Translations under genes and position numbers: made by a program
Notes under the pieces: generated by a model
The model's input: the letters and a program-made list of their open reading frames with translations, nothing else
Databases searched by the model: none
What the model was told of the DNA's origin: nothing
NCBI GenBank assembly: GCA_945883955.1
Contig: CAMCYN010000010.1
Coordinates: 1-36,160, forward strand
From: Akkermansia muciniphila
GTDB lineage: Bacteria > Verrucomicrobiota > Verrucomicrobiia > Chthoniobacterales > Chthoniobacteraceae
DNA: 36,160 bases
Direction: 5' to 3'
Shown: positions 18,433-35,905 of the stretch, in pieces
Layout of the letters: the number at the start of each line of letters is the position of its first letter
How positions within the stretch are numbered: position 1 is the first letter of the stretch

Positions 18433-18792
18433 TTAACCCATGGGGGTATGGTCGTAGACGACCTCCCGGCCAAAGAACGGTTTGCAAATCGCCACAAACC
18501 GCTGATGAAACTCGGACCCGCTCAGGTAAAACTCGTGGTCGGCCATGTTTTTGAAATGGAGCAAACTCGCGTAATCAAACGAATGATCCGTGGCCGGCCG
18601 CTCCTCAGTCGGGGCGGGTTTTCCGATGCACGAATAGGCGAGATACGGGGCATTCGCCAGCGCCGGAAGCTTCCGCTCGAAGGTGGTCCGCTGCTCGGAC
18701 GAGGGGTCCTGCTTCAGCCAGAAATATACGTTATGAATGATCCTTGGCGTTTGGTGTCGAAATGTTGAACTGCGTTCCGTCGGACTCTCCAT
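18433..18792 (-). CDS. Dabb (stress-responsive A/B barrel) domain protein
   Basis: RIIHNVYFWLKQDPSSEQRTTFERKLPALANAPYL...FDYASLLHFKNMADHEFYLSGSEFHQRFV typical Dabb pattern; start codon uncertain. Confidence 0.75.
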   Translation of the reverse strand: MESPTERSSTFRHQTPRIIHNVYFWLKQDPSSEQRTTFERKLPALANAPYLAYSCIGKPAPTEERPATDHSFDYASLLHFKNMADHEFYLSGSEFHQRFVAICKPFFGREVVYDHTPMG

Positions 18793-18961
18793 CCGGCAGC
18801 GAATTGCCGTCCCTCGGAACGACCCGCGTTACCAAAAACCCTGGCGAAAGGTTGTCTCCCGTTGCCAATATTTGGTCTATTCCTGCCATCCCGCAGCCTC
18901 CGCCAAAGCCCATCCGCTTGAACTCAGGCGCGCTCTCGCCGCTCTCTCCCCGCTCGCTCCA

Positions 18962-19891
18962 ATGATCTTCGCAACATCACCTCTTTGCCCGTCTCATGAT
19001 CCCGGCCCCAATCATCCCGAAAAGGTGGCCCGATACCATAGTGTGCTCGACGCGCTCCAAGCCGCGGACCTTCTCTCCCGATCCACCCGGATTGAGGGCA
19101 AGCCCGCCAGCGAGGAAGACCTTCTGCTGGTACACGACGCCGCCTATATCGAGTTGGCAAAACGCGAGATCCAGTACGGTTACGACCACCTGAGTACGGG
19201 CGACACCCAAGTCTGCGCCGCCTCCTGGAGCGCAGCCCAGGCCGCCGCCGGATGCGCCATCGAGGCGACCGAAGCCGTGGTGAAAGGACCGCACAAAACC
19301 GCCTTCTGTCTGGTGCGTCCGCCGGGACATCACGCCTCGGCGGCCATCGGTATGGGGTTCTGTATTCTTAACAACGTGGCAATCGCCGCCCGCTACGCCC
19401 AGCGGCGTTTGGGTTTGGAGCGTATCCTCATCGTGGACTGGGACGTACATCATGGAAACGGCACCCAGAACATTTTCTATCACGACAGGAACGTCTTCTT
19501 TTTTAGCACCCACCAATCCCCCTGGTATCCCGGGACGGGCCGTGCTTCGGAAACCGGCGAGGGAGCCGGAGTAGGCACCACATTGAATTGCCCCCTGCCC
19601 GCCGGCAGCGGACGCACCGCAGTCTTTTCCTGTTTCGAAAAGCAACTCCTTCCAGCGATGGAAAAGTTTCGGCCCGAACTCGTTTTCATCAGCGCCGGGT
19701 TTGATTCTCGCAAAGGCGACCCCCTAGGAAAATTCGAGCTCTCCGACACCGACTTTGCCGATCTGACAAATTGCGTCCGGGAAATTGCCGCCAAAAACGC
19801 CGACGGACGGGTCGTGAGCGTCCTGGAGGGCGGATATTCCCTCTCGGGCCTCGCCTCGGCGGCGACCGCACATGTAGGCGCGCTGCTGTAA
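18962..19891 (+). CDS. histone deacetylase-family protein (class II-like / acetoin utilisation family)
   Basis: RPPGHHA, GFCILNNVAIAARYA, ILIVDWDVHHGNGTQNIFY, FISAGFDSRKGDPLG, VLEGGYSLSGLA. Start set at ATG 18962 (MIFATSPLCPSHDPGPNHPE). Confidence 0.92.
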   Translation: MIFATSPLCPSHDPGPNHPEKVARYHSVLDALQAADLLSRSTRIEGKPASEEDLLLVHDAAYIELAKREIQYGYDHLSTGDTQVCAASWSAAQAAAGCAIEATEAVVKGPHKTAFCLVRPPGHHASAAIGMGFCILNNVAIAARYAQRRLGLERILIVDWDVHHGNGTQNIFYHDRNVFFFSTHQSPWYPGTGRASETGEGAGVGTTLNCPLPAGSGRTAVFSCFEKQLLPAMEKFRPELVFISAGFDSRKGDPLGKFELSDTDFADLTNCVREIAAKNADGRVVSVLEGGYSLSGLASAATAHVGALL

Positions 19892-28945: not shown

Positions 28946-31597
28946 ATGCGAGGCTCGCACCTTCCATTGGCCGCGCTTTTCTGGAGCGCCTTCTCCAGTT
29001 TTTCCTCCGGAGCCACGGCTGCCCCCCAAGCCGCTGTGAACACAAAGTACAAAGCATTTTTCAAAGACTACTGCGTGTCCTGCCATGACGAGGAGAAACA
29101 CAAAGGCAGTGTTCGTCTGGATAATCTGTCCTTTGAAATCAACTCGCTGGAAGCGGCAGAGCGCTGGCAAAAGGTGTTGAATTCCATGAACTCGGGGGAG
29201 ATGCCTCCCGAGGACAAGAAGCAGCCGGACAAGGTTCTGAAGACAGATTTCCTCGAGCATCTCTCCCAGGAGATGGTCGTGGCGCGCAAAACCATCGGGG
29301 ATGCAAACGGGAAAATCACCCTGCGCCGACTCAACCGCCGCGAATACAAAAACACCCTCCGCGACCTGCTGGGCGTCGACATCAGTGTGGCAGATCTGCC
29401 GCCGGATGGCAGCCCGGGCACTTTCGACACCGTCGGCTCGAGCCTCTTTATGTCGAGCAGCCAGTTTGAATCCTACCGGCATCTGGGACGCAATGCGGTG
29501 AACGCCGCTTTTGAGCTGTTCGCAACTCCGGTCGCCAACCGAAAGCATCACATCGAGCCGGAAGAGGCCGTCAACAAAACCGTCGAGAAGGAGATGGCCA
29601 GACAGGGGAGTATTCGGAAACGCGTCGCAATGTGGACGAGGGAAGTGGATACCGCCGCTAAACGGCCTGAGAATGCGAACGTAGTGGCTGAAATCCGCGC
29701 GAAGACAAAGACAGAGCCACATCAACTCCACGCCGCCTGGGAAAAGATTGCCGGCGCCCCTGCCCCGACAGAGTTCGGATTTGTAGATGCACAAGACGCC
29801 TTTGGTCACGAAGGCCAGTGGAAGACCTTCATTCCCCCCATCGTGGATTACCTCAGTCTGCCAAAGGTGCGCAGTGGCGCCTATCTGAGCTCGGGAATGT
29901 CCAGCACGACGGCCGCTGCCTGCTCTGTGCCAAACGAGTGGCCCCCGGGCGATTACCTTATGCGCATCCGGCTCGCCTACGTCGGACCTCTTTCTCTGGT
30001 GCCGTCCCGCACTGATTTCAAAGCGATGCCTGCGCCTGAACCCGCGGAAAACCGGCGGTTCCTGGATGTGATTTACGCGGACTCCGAAATCGTACTCAGC
30101 ACCCATCAGGTCACCGGGACCATGGAGGCCCCGCAGGAGCTGGTCGTGCCGGTGAGTATCAAGAAGCCGGGATACCGTTTTTTCAGGCTGCGGGAAACAA
30201 ACCCGGAGGTCAGTCGCACAGACGTCGATAAGAACCCCGCGATTTGGATCGACTGGGTCGAGTTCGAAGGGCCCTTAAACACCACCCGGCCAACACCCGT
30301 TGCCATACAGGCTATCCAGCCTCTCCTGACGAAAGCGTCCAGCACCGACGTGGACGTGCGAAAAACACTGGAGACTTTTGCCGTGCAGGCTTTCCGGGGC
30401 CGGGTTCCCTCGCCAGCCTACCTAGACAAGCTGCTAGCCCTTTATCAAACGCGCCGGGAAGCGGGAGAAAAACCTGAAATCGCCATCCGCACCCCGCTTT
30501 CACTCGTTCTATCTTCTCCTCATTTTCTGTATCTCTCCGAGCCGGTGGCTGAGAAGCAACGCCGCCCGCTCACCGATCTGGAGCTGGCAACCCGCCTCTC
30601 GTACTTCCTGTGGAGCGCTCCTCCCGACGCTCAACTCCTCTCGCTTGCCCAACAGGGGCAACTTCAACAACCCGCCATTTTGAAAAGCGAAGTGGAACGC
30701 CTCCTCGCCAGCGAGAAAGCACGGGAACTGGTCACAGGCTTTACCCGCCAATGGCTCGGAATCGATCGCCTCGATTTCTTTATGTTTAATCCAAAACGCT
30801 TTCCGGCGTTTTCATCAGCCGTGAAAGAGGCGGCCCGGGAGGAGGTCTTTTCCACAGTGGCTTTGCTGCTCAAAAACAACCGCAGCCTCACCAATCTGCT
30901 TACCTCCAGCGAGGTCGTCGTTAACGGGCTCCTCGCCAACTATTACAAGATGGACGGCGTCGCAGGAGACGAATTCCGTCCGGTAACCCTACCCGCGAAG
31001 TCACCCCGGGGCGGCCTGCTTGGCATGGCCGCGATTCTCGCGATGGGAAGTAACGGGGAGCACACCAGCCCCGTGGAGCGTGGAGCTTGGGTTATGAGAA
31101 AAATGCTATTCACGCCGCCTCCACCTGCGCCGCCAAACGTCCCGCAGCTCACCCGACTGGAGGGCCAGCTGCTCACCACCCGAGAAAGGCTGTCGGCTCA
31201 TCAGGAGGATCCTCAATGCGCGAGCTGTCATCGAAAAATCGACCCGATCGGCTTCGGTTTGGAGAACTTCGATGCCGTGGGACAATGGCGAACCCAGGAC
31301 GGTTACGAAAAAGAGGGCGTCGGCAAGAAGACTTGGGAGATCGAGCCCGCCGGAGCTTTCCACAATGGACCGGCGTTCGCGAATTACCTGGAGCTGCGCT
31401 CCCTGATTGCAGCCAAGCCGGAGAACTTTGCACGTGGCTTCACGGAAGCCCTGATCGAATACGGTCTGGGCCGACCTTGTGGGTTCAGTGATCAGGATCT
31501 TGTCCAGGGGATCGTTCAAGCTGCGAGGAAAAGGGATTTTGCGATGCAGGAATTTATCCAGGCTTTGGTCGCCAGCCAGGCCTTCCACACCAAATAA
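28946..31597 (+). CDS. PVC-type cytochrome c / DUF1587-DUF1592-DUF1588-DUF1585 protein
   Basis: YCVSCHDEEKHKGSVRLDNLSF haem c motif, RRLNRREYKNTLRDLLG, ATRLSYFLWSAPPDAQLL, GGLLGMAAILAMGSNGEHTSPVERGAWVMRKML, QCASCHRKIDPIGFGLENFDAVG. Confidence 0.93.
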   Translation: MRGSHLPLAALFWSAFSSFSSGATAAPQAAVNTKYKAFFKDYCVSCHDEEKHKGSVRLDNLSFEINSLEAAERWQKVLNSMNSGEMPPEDKKQPDKVLKTDFLEHLSQEMVVARKTIGDANGKITLRRLNRREYKNTLRDLLGVDISVADLPPDGSPGTFDTVGSSLFMSSSQFESYRHLGRNAVNAAFELFATPVANRKHHIEPEEAVNKTVEKEMARQGSIRKRVAMWTREVDTAAKRPENANVVAEIRAKTKTEPHQLHAAWEKIAGAPAPTEFGFVDAQDAFGHEGQWKTFIPPIVDYLSLPKVRSGAYLSSGMSSTTAAACSVPNEWPPGDYLMRIRLAYVGPLSLVPSRTDFKAMPAPEPAENRRFLDVIYADSEIVLSTHQVTGTMEAPQELVVPVSIKKPGYRFFRLRETNPEVSRTDVDKNPAIWIDWVEFEGPLNTTRPTPVAIQAIQPLLTKASSTDVDVRKTLETFAVQAFRGRVPSPAYLDKLLALYQTRREAGEKPEIAIRTPLSLVLSSPHFLYLSEPVAEKQRRPLTDLELATRLSYFLWSAPPDAQLLSLAQQGQLQQPAILKSEVERLLASEKARELVTGFTRQWLGIDRLDFFMFNPKRFPAFSSAVKEAAREEVFSTVALLLKNNRSLTNLLTSSEVVVNGLLANYYKMDGVAGDEFRPVTLPAKSPRGGLLGMAAILAMGSNGEHTSPVERGAWVMRKMLFTPPPPAPPNVPQLTRLEGQLLTTRERLSAHQEDPQCASCHRKIDPIGFGLENFDAVGQWRTQDGYEKEGVGKKTWEIEPAGAFHNGPAFANYLELRSLIAAKPENFARGFTEALIEYGLGRPCGFSDQDLVQGIVQAARKRDFAMQEFIQALVASQAFHTK

Positions 31598-31607
31598 CCC
31601 CCGATTT

Positions 31608-32891
31608 ATGAGTCTTTTATCCCGTCGTCATTTCCTTCGGAGTGCAAGCGCCCTAATCGCTTTACCTGCATTGGAGTCGTTTGGATTTCGGCGTTTTGCC
31701 TCAGCCGCCTCTCCCGCAGTCCCCGCACCGAAGCGTTTCATATTTCTAGGATTCGGCTTTGGAGTAACCAACGAGACCTGGTTCCCAGACCCGAAAACCA
31801 CAGGCGAAAAGTACCCCCTGCCTCCGGGGTTAGAACCACTGGCACGTCACCAGAAAGACTTCACTGTGGTCCAAGGCTGCAGGCATCGATTTAGCGACAA
31901 TCCACATGGAGGAAGCACGTTCTGGCTCACCGGAGCGAACCCATTTTCCGAACCGGGACAAAGCTTTCACAACACCATTTCAGCCGACCAGATCGCCGCA
32001 GCCCAACTTGGAAAAGAAACGCGTTTCACCTCAGTCCAGCTTTGTAGCAGCGAACCCGCGAGTACCGGACACGGCGCGGGTCTTTCACTTGCCTGGGATG
32101 ACCACGGCAAGCCAATCCCAGGATTCGAAACGCCACTACAAGCGTTCCACAAGATGTTCTCCCCCGAAACCGCTCCTTTGGCACAGCGGAAGGCAATGTT
32201 ACTCCAGGAGCGCAGTATCCTCGACACCGTACTCGAGGATGTAAACGACATCAGTCGCGGCCTCAACAAAACCGACATCGACAAGGTGTCCGAGTATTTA
32301 CAGAGCCTCCGGGACATCGAGACGCGCCTCGAAAAGGAAGAGAAATGGCTCACCGTCGAAAAACCCAAGTCTCCCGTCTCGGCCCCCGGCAACGGACTAG
32401 CCGGGCGCGAGGAAATAAAGGTGATGTACGATCTGTTGGTGGCGGCACTGCAAACAGACATCACCCGTGTGGTGACTTATCGCCAACCGATTAGCTCCCT
32501 GCTCACCAGTATTGGAGTGAAGGTGGCGGCCCACGACATGAGCCACTACTCGCCAGGCGAACGGATGGCAGCTTCCCAAACACGCGACGTGGCCCAAAGC
32601 GAACTGCTGGCCGGTCTGCTGGATAAACTCAAAGCAACCACGAGCCCCGACGGAACGACTCTCTTCGATCACACGACTCTCGTCTTTGGCAGCAACCTCC
32701 GTACGGGCCATTACCTGGATAATTGCCCAACCATCCTAGCTGGGGGCGGAGCCGGGATAAAACTTGGCCAGCATGTGGTGCTCCCGAAAGACACGCCGCT
32801 TTGTAATGTGTGGCTCACGCTTTTGAAGGGATCGGGAATCAGCGTGCAAAGCATCGGTGACAGCACGGGGACACTCACGGCGTTGAGTTGA
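31608..32891 (+). CDS. DUF1552 family protein with Tat signal
   Basis: SRRHFLRSASALIALPALESF twin-arginine leader; GGSTFWLTGANP, SADQIAAAQLG, DITRVVTYRQP, FGSNLRTGHYLDNCPTILAGGGAG. Start at ATG 31608. Confidence 0.9.
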   Translation: MSLLSRRHFLRSASALIALPALESFGFRRFASAASPAVPAPKRFIFLGFGFGVTNETWFPDPKTTGEKYPLPPGLEPLARHQKDFTVVQGCRHRFSDNPHGGSTFWLTGANPFSEPGQSFHNTISADQIAAAQLGKETRFTSVQLCSSEPASTGHGAGLSLAWDDHGKPIPGFETPLQAFHKMFSPETAPLAQRKAMLLQERSILDTVLEDVNDISRGLNKTDIDKVSEYLQSLRDIETRLEKEEKWLTVEKPKSPVSAPGNGLAGREEIKVMYDLLVAALQTDITRVVTYRQPISSLLTSIGVKVAAHDMSHYSPGERMAASQTRDVAQSELLAGLLDKLKATTSPDGTTLFDHTTLVFGSNLRTGHYLDNCPTILAGGGAGIKLGQHVVLPKDTPLCNVWLTLLKGSGISVQSIGDSTGTLTALS

Positions 32892-33562: not shown

Positions 33563-35905
33563 ATGTTACAAACCATCATCCACAGCATTACAGATCATCC
33601 CACTATTAGCCTGCTCGTATTCGGATTTGTTTTCTTTGTATACAACTCCATTACCATTGCCGGCGGGAATGAAATAATCACCCTTGAAAGGCGTTGGCTA
33701 GGCACCCAGATGCCGGACGGACGTACAATAGCACTCAGCAATGAAGTCGGAGTTCAGGCAAGGGTGCTCGGTCCAGGAATCCATCTCCTGATTCCCTTCC
33801 TTTATACCACAAGCAAGAACCGCTTTTTGGAAATTCCTAAATACAAGGTTGGGGTCGTTCGTGCGATTACGGGCGCCCCAATTCCTTCCGGGAATTTTAT
33901 GGCGAAGTCCGTAGCCTGCGATTTATTTCAGGACGGAGAAGCCTTCCTTAGAAACGGCGGCGAAAAAGGGCCTCAACTAAACATTCTACCCGAAGGGGAA
34001 TATAAAATTAACCCACACTTATTTGAAGTCGACATCGTAGACGCCATCATGATTGGCGAATTTGAGGTTGGATGTGTCGAAGCCATCGCCGGAAAGCCGG
34101 TTTCCCGGGCCGGGGGTAACTTTGGGTCCCCGGTAGAATGCGACAGTTTCCAGGACGCCGATGCGTTTATTAATAACGGTGGCCAGAAAGGCCCACAGAT
34201 ATTCTTTCTGGTGCCCGGCTTCTACCGGATCAATACCATTCTGTTTACTGTGATAAAGCACCCGATTACCGAGGTACCGGGGGGTAAGATCGCGTTAATT
34301 GAATCCAGCGACGGAGCTGGGATCCCGGAAGGCCGTCTGTTGGCCGGAAAGGTCAAAGGTCATAACAACTTCTTTGATGGCGAAGCTTTCATTCGCAACG
34401 GAGGCGAAAAAGGACGGCAATCCGACGTATTAATGCCCGGGAAATACCGTATCAACCCGGCTCTCTTTAAGGTGATCAGTATGGTCGACTGGACCAATAT
34501 TGAAGCCGATCAAATCGGGATTATTACCACTCTCGAAGGCAAACCGATCGTGGACTCGACAAAAATCGCCGCCGAAGAACTCCCCATGGAGCTCCACAAC
34601 AACTTCCAGGATCCGGCGGCGTTCCTTGCTGCCGGGGGCCAAAAAGGGCTCCAGATCCCTGTGCTACGCGCCGGGAACTACGTCATCAACCCGTGGTTTG
34701 CCTCCATTGAAAAGGTGGCGATGATCCGGGTAGACATCGGGTTTTGCGGAGTGGTGACCAGCTTCGTGGGCCCCGAAGGAGCCGACCTTACGGACGACGC
34801 GGTCAACGCCAAAATCGTGACCAATGGGAACAAAGGGATCTGGAACGACCCGCTCCAGCCCGGAAAACACCCGCTCAACACCAAGATTCTGAAGGTGGAT
34901 ATAGTACCCACCACCCAGATCCTTTTGAACTGGGCCGACAGCCGTTCGAGCGCCCACGAGCTGGATGCGAACCTCAAAACCATCACACTGCGTACGTCCG
35001 ACGCCTTTAATGTGAGTATGGATGTTAGCGTCATTATTCATATCCCGATGAAAAATGCGCCCAAGGTGATTGCTAACCTCGGTTCGGTTAAGAACATGAT
35101 TTCGCAGGTGCTGGAACCTGCGATTAGTTCCCACTTCCGGAATGCGGCCCAATACATCAAAGCATTAGATCTTTATACCGAAAGAAAGGAATTACAGATT
35201 AAAGCCAAGGAACACATCGATGGGGTGCTGAAGGTGCACCATATTGATTCAAAAGACACCTTGATAGCGGACGTTGTATTGCCGTTGGAGCTTACCAAAA
35301 CCGTTACTGACAGGCAAATCGCTGAACAGGAGAGAAAGACGTTTGCGACGCAGAAAGAAGCGCAGGATGAACGGCGGGCCCTCGAAAACGCCACCGCCCA
35401 GGCTGCCATGCAGCCGAAAGTAGTGGAATCCGAACGTAACGTTGAAATTCAAAAGAATATTGCCGAAGGAAAGGTAAAGGAAGCGGAAGGATCCAAATTA
35501 GCGGCCATTTTACACGCCTCGGGGGAAGCAGAAGCCACAAAGCTAAAAGCGATCGCTCAGGCGGAGGCTACCAAGGTCACTGCCATTGCTAATGCGGAAG
35601 CCACCTCGAAAGTAGGTTCGGCGGAAGCAGAAGTAATTTTGGCAAAAGGTAAGTCGAATGCGGAAGCCTATCGTCTGGAAGTAGACGCCATGGGCCAGGA
35701 CGTATTCGGACAAATCCGGGTCATAGAAAAAATCGCGGCCAGCAATCTGAAACTTATTCCCGAAAACCTTGTGATGGGCGGCGGGGGCGAGGGCGGCGGC
35801 ATGATGAACGGTTTCTTTGGAATAAGCCTGCTCGAAAAAATGACAGGCCGCAGCTTCGGAGCGAAGAGTGATAAACAGATGAAACTCGAGAATCCAATCT
35901 CGTAA
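33563..35905 (+). CDS. membrane-anchored SPFH/Band 7 (flotillin-like) protein with five tandem N-terminal modules
   Basis: N-terminal TM ISLLVFGFVFFVYNSITI; repeated xxVGVVxxxxGxP...FQDxxAFxxNGGxKGxQ...PGxYxINPxLFxV; SPFH core LRTSDAFNVSMDVSVIIHIP...VLEPAISSHFRNAAQYI; long Ala/Glu-rich helix ASGEAEATKLKAIAQAEATKVTAIANAEATSK. Confidence 0.9.
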   Translation: MLQTIIHSITDHPTISLLVFGFVFFVYNSITIAGGNEIITLERRWLGTQMPDGRTIALSNEVGVQARVLGPGIHLLIPFLYTTSKNRFLEIPKYKVGVVRAITGAPIPSGNFMAKSVACDLFQDGEAFLRNGGEKGPQLNILPEGEYKINPHLFEVDIVDAIMIGEFEVGCVEAIAGKPVSRAGGNFGSPVECDSFQDADAFINNGGQKGPQIFFLVPGFYRINTILFTVIKHPITEVPGGKIALIESSDGAGIPEGRLLAGKVKGHNNFFDGEAFIRNGGEKGRQSDVLMPGKYRINPALFKVISMVDWTNIEADQIGIITTLEGKPIVDSTKIAAEELPMELHNNFQDPAAFLAAGGQKGLQIPVLRAGNYVINPWFASIEKVAMIRVDIGFCGVVTSFVGPEGADLTDDAVNAKIVTNGNKGIWNDPLQPGKHPLNTKILKVDIVPTTQILLNWADSRSSAHELDANLKTITLRTSDAFNVSMDVSVIIHIPMKNAPKVIANLGSVKNMISQVLEPAISSHFRNAAQYIKALDLYTERKELQIKAKEHIDGVLKVHHIDSKDTLIADVVLPLELTKTVTDRQIAEQERKTFATQKEAQDERRALENATAQAAMQPKVVESERNVEIQKNIAEGKVKEAEGSKLAAILHASGEAEATKLKAIAQAEATKVTAIANAEATSKVGSAEAEVILAKGKSNAEAYRLEVDAMGQDVFGQIRVIEKIAASNLKLIPENLVMGGGGEGGGMMNGFFGISLLEKMTGRSFGAKSDKQMKLENPIS
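33842..34920 (+). repeat. five degenerate coding repeats (~73-77 aa each) in the SPFH protein
   Basis: Module starts at 33842, 34061, 34283, 34508 and 34739 (spacings 73, 74, 75, 77 codons); modules 1-4 share FxDxxAFxxxGGxKGxQ, module 5 lacks it. Confidence 0.85.

What the first reader, a model, noticed from the sequence alone, without database searches (positions are those of the whole stretch)
33563..35905. SPFH protein with a tandem-module arm: vault-like architecture in a bacterium
The sequence shows a TM helix, a half-module (EVGVQARVLGPGIHLLIPF, from 33740), five tandem modules spaced 73-77 codons apart, an SPFH core and a long Ala/Glu-rich helix. Classical flotillins and stomatins have only one or two such beta modules before the helix. 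The order repeat array, SPFH-like shoulder, long helix is the known domain order of eukaryotic major vault protein. Modules 1-4 also carry an insertion, F(Q/F)DxxAFxxxGGxKGxQ, that I do not recognise. Inference: this may build an elongated membrane-anchored cage or barrel, either a vault relative or an independent elaboration of SPFH cages such as HflKC or flotillin.
Basis: partly seen in the sequence, partly recalled or inferred. Interest (0 to 1): 0.75.

Follow-up and report, generated by a model that had tools for sequence, protein, structure and literature searches.

The report
Membrane SPFH protein with vault-like arm
This bacterial gene makes a membrane-anchored protein of the flotillin/stomatin (SPFH) kind whose N-terminal part is a row of six repeated beta modules predicted to fold like the repeats that build the wall of the eukaryotic vault particle; related proteins with three to six modules occur in several bacterial phyla and in very large phages, so arm length looks adjustable, but no assembly or function has been tested.

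Summary
The arm folds confidently (pLDDT 88.7). Its 15 best PDB matches are all major vault protein (MVP), including isolated R1-R7 crystals; SPFH1 domains of prohibitin, HflC and stomatin come next. Sequence methods show no MVP link. They also fail on a true SPFH/MVP-shoulder pair, so they cannot separate common ancestry from convergence. Window modules M1-M3 arose by triplicating one module of the four-module form. Six-module orthologues (76-84% identical, saturated synonymous sites) are under strong purifying selection. Most likely this is a cytoplasm-facing, membrane-anchored SPFH cage whose wall was lengthened by module duplication. It works like a membrane-bound half-vault but fails the MVP membership tests. 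I found no earlier description in the open-access library searched.

The parts
33563..35905 (+). whole gene, 780-aa multi-module SPFH protein
   Evidence: orthologues 76-84% identical; purifying selection
33599..33649 (+). N-terminal transmembrane helix (residues 13-29); K/R excess on its C-terminal side suggests a cytoplasmic arm
   Evidence: models; charge count
   Evidence: HMM 39 bits; strands
33833..34054 (+). module M1 (91-164), B-type
   Evidence: HMM 108 bits; module tree
33926..33976 (+). FQDGEAFLRNGGEKGPQ motif of M1 (residues 122-138)
   Evidence: helix 125-130
34055..34273 (+). module M2 (165-237), B-type extra copy
   Evidence: HMM 101 bits; groups with B modules (98% support)
34148..34198 (+). 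FQD motif of M2 (residues 196-212)
   Evidence: helix 199-204
34274..34495 (+). module M3 (238-311), B-type extra copy
   Evidence: HMM 98 bits
34370..34420 (+). FFD motif of M3 (residues 270-286)
   Evidence: helix 273-278
34499..34726 (+). module M4 (313-388), C-type
   Evidence: HMM 90 bits; groups with C modules (93%)
34604..34654 (+). FQD motif of M4 (residues 348-364)
   Evidence: helix 351-356
34730..34918 (+). module M5 (390-452), which is the SPFH1 subdomain itself
   Evidence: HMM 60 bits; overlaps the Band_7 match; groups with all m5 (100%)
34832..35365 (+). SPFH / Band 7 core (Pfam match, residues 424-601)
   Evidence: PF01145 E 1.8e-22
35285..35692 (+). long Ala/Glu-rich helix, CC1-like (residues 575-710)
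   Evidence: residues 579-711 match flotillin-2
35696..35797 (+). C-terminal short helix and IAASNLKLIPENLVMGGG stretch, cap-like end (residues 712-745)
   Evidence: conserved; resembles the AIASNSK linker of erlins quoted

Best explanation
It is a membrane-anchored SPFH scaffold protein with an extended arm. Shown by sequence and prediction: a TM helix, then six copies of an SPFH1-type / MVP-repeat-type beta module (the last being the SPFH1 domain itself), then SPFH2, a helix of about 136 residues and a cap-like tail. Shown by comparison: the arm is of variable length in the wider family (3, 4, 5 or 6 modules), and the six-module form arose by triplicating the first FQD-bearing (B) module of a four-module form. 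Inferred: like other SPFH proteins it assembles, through SPFH2, CC1 and the cap, into a closed ring or dome on the membrane. The modules stand between membrane and dome as a tall wall, so that the whole works like half a vault whose waist is replaced by the membrane. The arm probably faces the cytoplasm. With a 136-residue CC1, the published CC1-length regression (PMC12624060) would give about 34 copies; that is a prediction, not a result. The likely job is to fence off a patch of membrane and its proteins with a deeper lumen than flotillin or QmcA offer. A single gene without a partner suggests a homo-oligomer.
For: Band_7 match. Six significant modules. Arm model pLDDT 88.7, pTM 0.73. Arm-only Foldseek: MVP E 3e-6 to 2e-4, TM mostly 0.25-0.44, including R1-R7 crystals 3gng/3gf5 at 0.40-0.42; SPFH1 of prohibitin/HflC/stomatin at E 0.01-0.1; unrelated matches have probability about 0. 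Full-length Foldseek: MVP 8.6e-15 first, then prohibitin, HflC, erlin, stomatin. BFVD: SPFH/band 7 proteins on top. Module counts 3-6. Module tree: M1-M3 with B 98%, M4 with C 93%, M5 with m5 100%. Charge bias C-side of the TM, 0.2 v 2.1 K/R in phage forms and 0.7 v 2.3 in six-module forms. No conserved gene neighbour beyond close relatives. Known SPFH complexes form rings or domes (PMC12624060).
Against: No oligomer was modelled and no experiment exists. TM-scores to MVP are moderate (about 0.4 at best) and rmsd about 7 A, so curvature differs or is poorly predicted. The full-length model is weak in places (pLDDT 71.6), with regions below 50 in M1-M3 that become confident only in the arm-only run. 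Topology rests on a crude charge count. The long helix is predicted at modest confidence, so the copy-number estimate could be about 22 if CC1 ends at residue 643.
Confidence: 0.62

Rival explanations
1. True vault kin: the arm modules and the MVP repeats R1-R9 descend from one ancestral repeat array, so MVP is a soluble, eukaryotic (and phage) offshoot of multi-module bacterial SPFH proteins, or the reverse.
For: Same domain order; MVP is the best structural match to the arm alone, ahead of every SPFH1 domain; huge phages carry both kinds, MVP proper in the 735-kb LR756501 and 462-kb LR756500 and the four-module SPFH protein in the 642-kb LR756502.
Against: No sequence signal: no Vault Pfam hit to E 10, none in PDB sequence searches, MVP no better than shuffled sequence with the module HMM, hhalign P at least 0.1 against an MVP profile. 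The module tree shows local duplication within the window clade, which proves that arms can grow independently. The window protein keeps a TM helix and lacks an MVP shoulder match.
Confidence: 0.25
2. The arm faces the periplasm, as in HflK/C, and the protein works as a cage around an inner-membrane protease or channel there.
For: HflK/C have the same TM-SPFH-helix layout and are periplasmic (PMC12624060); HflC is among the structural matches.
Against: K/R excess lies on the arm side of the TM in phage and six-module forms. No HflK/C family match above cut-off (PRK11029 14.9 bits v 427).
Confidence: 0.2
3. The modules are a ligand- or partner-binding string rather than a wall; ring formation is incidental or absent.
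For: The FQD/GGxKGxQ motif is conserved in every middle module, as expected of a binding element; assembly was not tested.
Against: Motif residues sit in a predicted helix-turn that could simply be structural; the fold match is to a wall-forming array.
Confidence: 0.15
4. Ordinary flotillin: an already catalogued SPFH2-type protein with nothing special in its arm.
For: Relatives in Rhizobium plasmids are named 'flotillin family protein'; the long helix matches flotillin-2.
Against: FloT model NF058507 scores 15.3 against a cut-off of 700 and only in the helix; single modules match no Pfam family; the 'giant SPFH2' proteins of Hinderhofer 2009 owe their size to coiled coil, not modules (PMC2636767).
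Confidence: 0.05

Closest known systems
Major vault protein (MVP), eukaryotic vault particle
   Same: Order repeat array - SPFH-type shoulder - long cap helix - cap; repeats are small antiparallel beta sheets; best fold match of both the full-length and the arm-only model.
   Different: TM anchor; modules about 74 residues with an FQD helix insertion; six modules instead of nine; no Vault or MVP_shoulder Pfam match; no detectable sequence similarity.
SPFH / Band 7 proteins (prohibitin, stomatin, HflK/C, erlin, QmcA)
   Same: Band_7 core, TM helix, long helix, cap-like tail; the module is the SPFH1 fold.
   Different: They carry one SPFH1 module; here there are five more in front of it.
Bacterial flotillin FloT/YuaG (SPFH2)
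   Same: SPFH core and long Ala/Glu-rich helix.
   Different: Scores far below the FloT cut-off; multi-module arm not part of FloT as known.
Four-module SPFH proteins of huge phages and other bacteria (L033-L091, L003-L006, Rhizobium L109)
   Same: Same protein family, 29-46% identical, same module types M0, B, C, M5.
   Different: One B module instead of three.

Membership tests
SPFH / Band 7 superfamily | Band_7 (PF01145) domain above gathering score | tested here: met
   80.7 bits v 23.6, residues 424-601
SPFH / Band 7 superfamily | SPFH1-SPFH2 fold followed by long CC1 helix | tested here: met
   model and Foldseek to prohibitin, HflC, erlin, stomatin
SPFH / Band 7 superfamily | assembles into a ring or dome | not testable with these tools
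   no multimer prediction offered; needs EM
Major vault protein | Vault repeat / MVP_shoulder Pfam domains (PF01505, PF17795, PF11978) | tested here: not met
   no such match up to E 10, while the same library finds MVP_shoulder in phage MVPs at 1e-28
Major vault protein | tandem N-terminal antiparallel beta repeats of MVP fold | tested here: met
   arm-only Foldseek, top 15 all MVP
Major vault protein | sequence homology to MVP | tested here: inconclusive
   no signal; the known SPFH-core/MVP-shoulder pair also fails in hhalign, so the test lacks power
Major vault protein | soluble, no membrane anchor; two halves joined at the waist | tested here: not met
   N-terminal TM helix in the six-module and phage members; waist joining not testable
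Flotillin FloT (NF058507) | score over family cut-off | tested here: not met
   15.3 v 700 bits, helix only
HflC (PRK11029) | score over family cut-off | tested here: not met
   14.9 v 427 bits
HflK/C | hetero-oligomer encoded by an adjacent gene pair | tested here: not met
   no SPFH partner beside the orthologues; neighbours not conserved; the window contig ends 255 bases downstream, so the window itself is blind on one side

The most novel reading that the evidence does not exclude
Bacteria and huge phages build membrane-bound half-vaults: closed, many-subunit barrels standing on the inner membrane whose height is set by the number of MVP-type repeats (3-6), and this family, which also travels in huge phages, is the prokaryotic stock from which the vault protein came.
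Probability: 0.2. Interest if true: 0.88.

Novelty: new variant of a known kind. Interest (0 to 1): 0.6.

Why it matters
Vaults are the odd member of the SPFH cages: huge, soluble, with nine repeats, and of unknown origin and function. A widespread prokaryotic and phage family with the same architecture but a membrane anchor and a variable number of repeats gives a natural series for asking how arm length sets cage height, and makes the origin of the vault wall testable. It also gives a name and borders to a repeat module that Pfam lacks, and shows that huge phages carry such proteins as a regular gene, next to a NAMPT gene and, in two phages examined, near capsid genes.

Tried and rejected
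Recent horizontal transfer of the six-module gene between phyla (first idea from 76-84% identity of Verrucomicrobiota and Acidobacteriota proteins with no shared neighbours) was rejected: synonymous sites are saturated and dN low, so the protein is old and strongly conserved; ancient transfer or loss remains open, and the Oligoflexus copy may be a binning error. Phage vehicle for the six-module form: no viral contig carries it and no phage DNA match exists. hhalign of the family against rat MVP and against an MVP profile: no signal, and the control also failed, so discarded as evidence either way. Module profile against PDB sequences and Pfam: nothing. Vault Pfam PF01505 in 145 genomes of the phylum: none, but the control did not ring either.

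Full report
What is there. The window's last gene, 33563-35905 on the + strand, is an intact 780-codon frame, and the contig ends 255 bases after it. A module HMM built from the gene and its close relatives finds six units: M0 35-90, M1 91-164, M2 165-237, M3 238-311, M4 313-388, M5 390-452. M1-M4 resemble one another far beyond shuffled sequence (z 14-29); M5 and M0 less so. M0 is not half a module but a complete one without the FQDxxAF insertion. M5 is the SPFH1 part of the Band 7 domain that Pfam finds at 424-601 (E 1.8e-22). A helix of about 136 residues and a cap-like tail follow.

Is it a real gene. Orthologues of the same length and module number, 76-84% identical, lie in about ten Verrucomicrobiota and Acidobacteriota (Geothrix, Holophagaceae) metagenome genomes. 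Against the window gene their synonymous sites are saturated (pS about 0.77-0.81) while dN is 0.12-0.16, in the arm as in the core. This is strong purifying selection and old divergence. No neighbour is shared outside very close relatives.

The fold. Two predictions were made, using only window and the search for related loci sequences. The full-length model is middling (pLDDT 71.6). The arm-only model (residues 1-389) is good (pLDDT 88.7, pTM 0.73) and shows the same strands in every module, plus a short helix at each FQD motif. Foldseek of the full-length model against the PDB ranks twelve MVP chains first (best E 8.6e-15), then prohibitin, HflC, erlin and stomatin. The arm alone, with the SPFH core removed, still ranks fifteen MVP chains first (E 3e-6 to 2e-4), among them crystals of the isolated R1-R7 repeats. 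SPFH1 domains follow at E 0.01 and above; after these nothing has a meaningful probability. In the viral library the best matches are SPFH/band 7 proteins, with E about 0.002 and above. So the module has the common fold of SPFH1 and the MVP repeat, and the array is most like MVP's. Published work describes MVP as nine antiparallel three-stranded beta repeats, an SPFH-like shoulder and a cap helix (PMC13347060).

Sequence does not settle ancestry. No Vault-type Pfam model matches to E 10, no MVP chain is found by phmmer or profile search of PDB sequences, and the module HMM scores MVPs no better than shuffled MVPs. hhalign gives nothing, but it also fails to score the SPFH core against the MVP shoulder, which is a true relation, although it finds the right register. 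The negative is therefore weak.

The family. The arm is not unique. In a sample of the phylum, 94 of 289 genomes carry some relative at E 1e-3 (some of these match only in the SPFH core); 41 of 247 Acidobacteriota genomes carry one at E 1e-30; 61 IMG/VR contigs encode a relative, many of them 100-500 kb; and so do Rhizobium, Streptomyces, Novosphingobium and Paraburkholderia plasmids. Module counts are 3, 4, 5 (several Acidobacteriota) or 6. Six modules were found only in the orthologue group. A tree of single modules puts M5 with every m5 (100%), M4 with the third module of four-module forms (93%), and M1, M2 and M3 with their second module (98%). The window form thus arose by tripling that second, B, module. 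Single modules match no Pfam family.

Mechanism. Step 1, membrane anchoring: predicted TM helix, with K/R excess on the arm side in phage and six-module forms, which favours a cytoplasmic arm. Step 2, ring assembly through SPFH2, CC1 and cap: inferred from all solved SPFH complexes (PMC12624060). With CC1 = 136 residues the published regression gives about 34 copies; if CC1 stops at 643 it gives about 22. Step 3, the modules stack as a wall between membrane and dome: inferred from the MVP match. Step 4, enclosing membrane proteins in a deep lumen: inference by analogy only. Confidence that the modules have the MVP/SPFH1 fold: about 0.9. In a ring with a module wall: about 0.65. In cytoplasmic orientation: about 0.7. 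In shared descent with MVP repeats: about 0.25.

Literature. Ten full-text searches found SPFH reviews and vault papers but no description of a bacterial SPFH protein with an MVP-type repeat arm. The 2009 classification of prokaryotic SPFH proteins mentions giant SPFH2 proteins enlarged by coiled coil, which is a different thing. Subscription papers and preprints are mostly not held, so absence here is not proof.

Limits. No multimer prediction, no Foldseek residue ranges, moderate TM-scores (about 0.4 at best), a shallow alignment for M2 and M3 (about ten sequences), and metagenome genomes that may hold misbinned contigs (Oligoflexus copy L031, truncated L032).

Noticed in passing
L111:3374-5803 (LR756501.1, 735-kb phage) and L112:2558-5041 (LR756500.1, 462-kb phage); also L113, L114: Huge phages encode genuine MVP-like proteins of 809 and 827 aa: MVP_shoulder E 1e-28 / 5e-27 and Vault_3. 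Rat MVP tblastn E 2e-16. The 2020 huge-phage paper's main text does not mention vault or SPFH.
   Followed up: partly
L033-L091 (IMG/VR), L108 (LR756502.1, 642 kb): Huge phages carry the four-module SPFH protein. One neighbouring gene family, upstream in 28 of about 60 loci, contains the L072 gene that matches NAMPT (phrog_448); a gp23-type capsid gene lies nearby in L033 and L072.
   Followed up: partly
L015, L016, L018, L019, L020, L102: Several PVC genomes have two SPFH genes with about three modules side by side, some with overlapping stop/start, which suggests a hetero-oligomer pair like HflK/HflC.
   Followed up: no
L120-L124, L130-L133: Five-module forms in Acidobacteriota, whose last module/SPFH1 matches the module HMM only weakly and in several is set off by a spacer.
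   Followed up: no
L110 (Vibrio phage 1.244.A, 160 kb): A three-module relative, annotated only as TMhelix protein, between ribonucleotide reductase and cpn60 chaperonin genes.
   Followed up: no
L031:5878-7101, Oligoflexus MAG: A 408-aa copy with 80% overall identity (88% over the match) that begins inside M5, after an unrelated leader; truncated gene, assembly join or binning error.
   Followed up: partly
window 28946-32891: A DUF1592/1588-type cytochrome-bearing protein (883 aa) and a DUF1552 (HXXSHH) protein side by side, upstream of the finding.
   Followed up: no
window 18737-19891: A histone-deacetylase-family gene (PF00850, E 7e-97) in a bacterium; probably an ordinary acetylpolyamine/acetoin-type deacetylase.
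   Followed up: no
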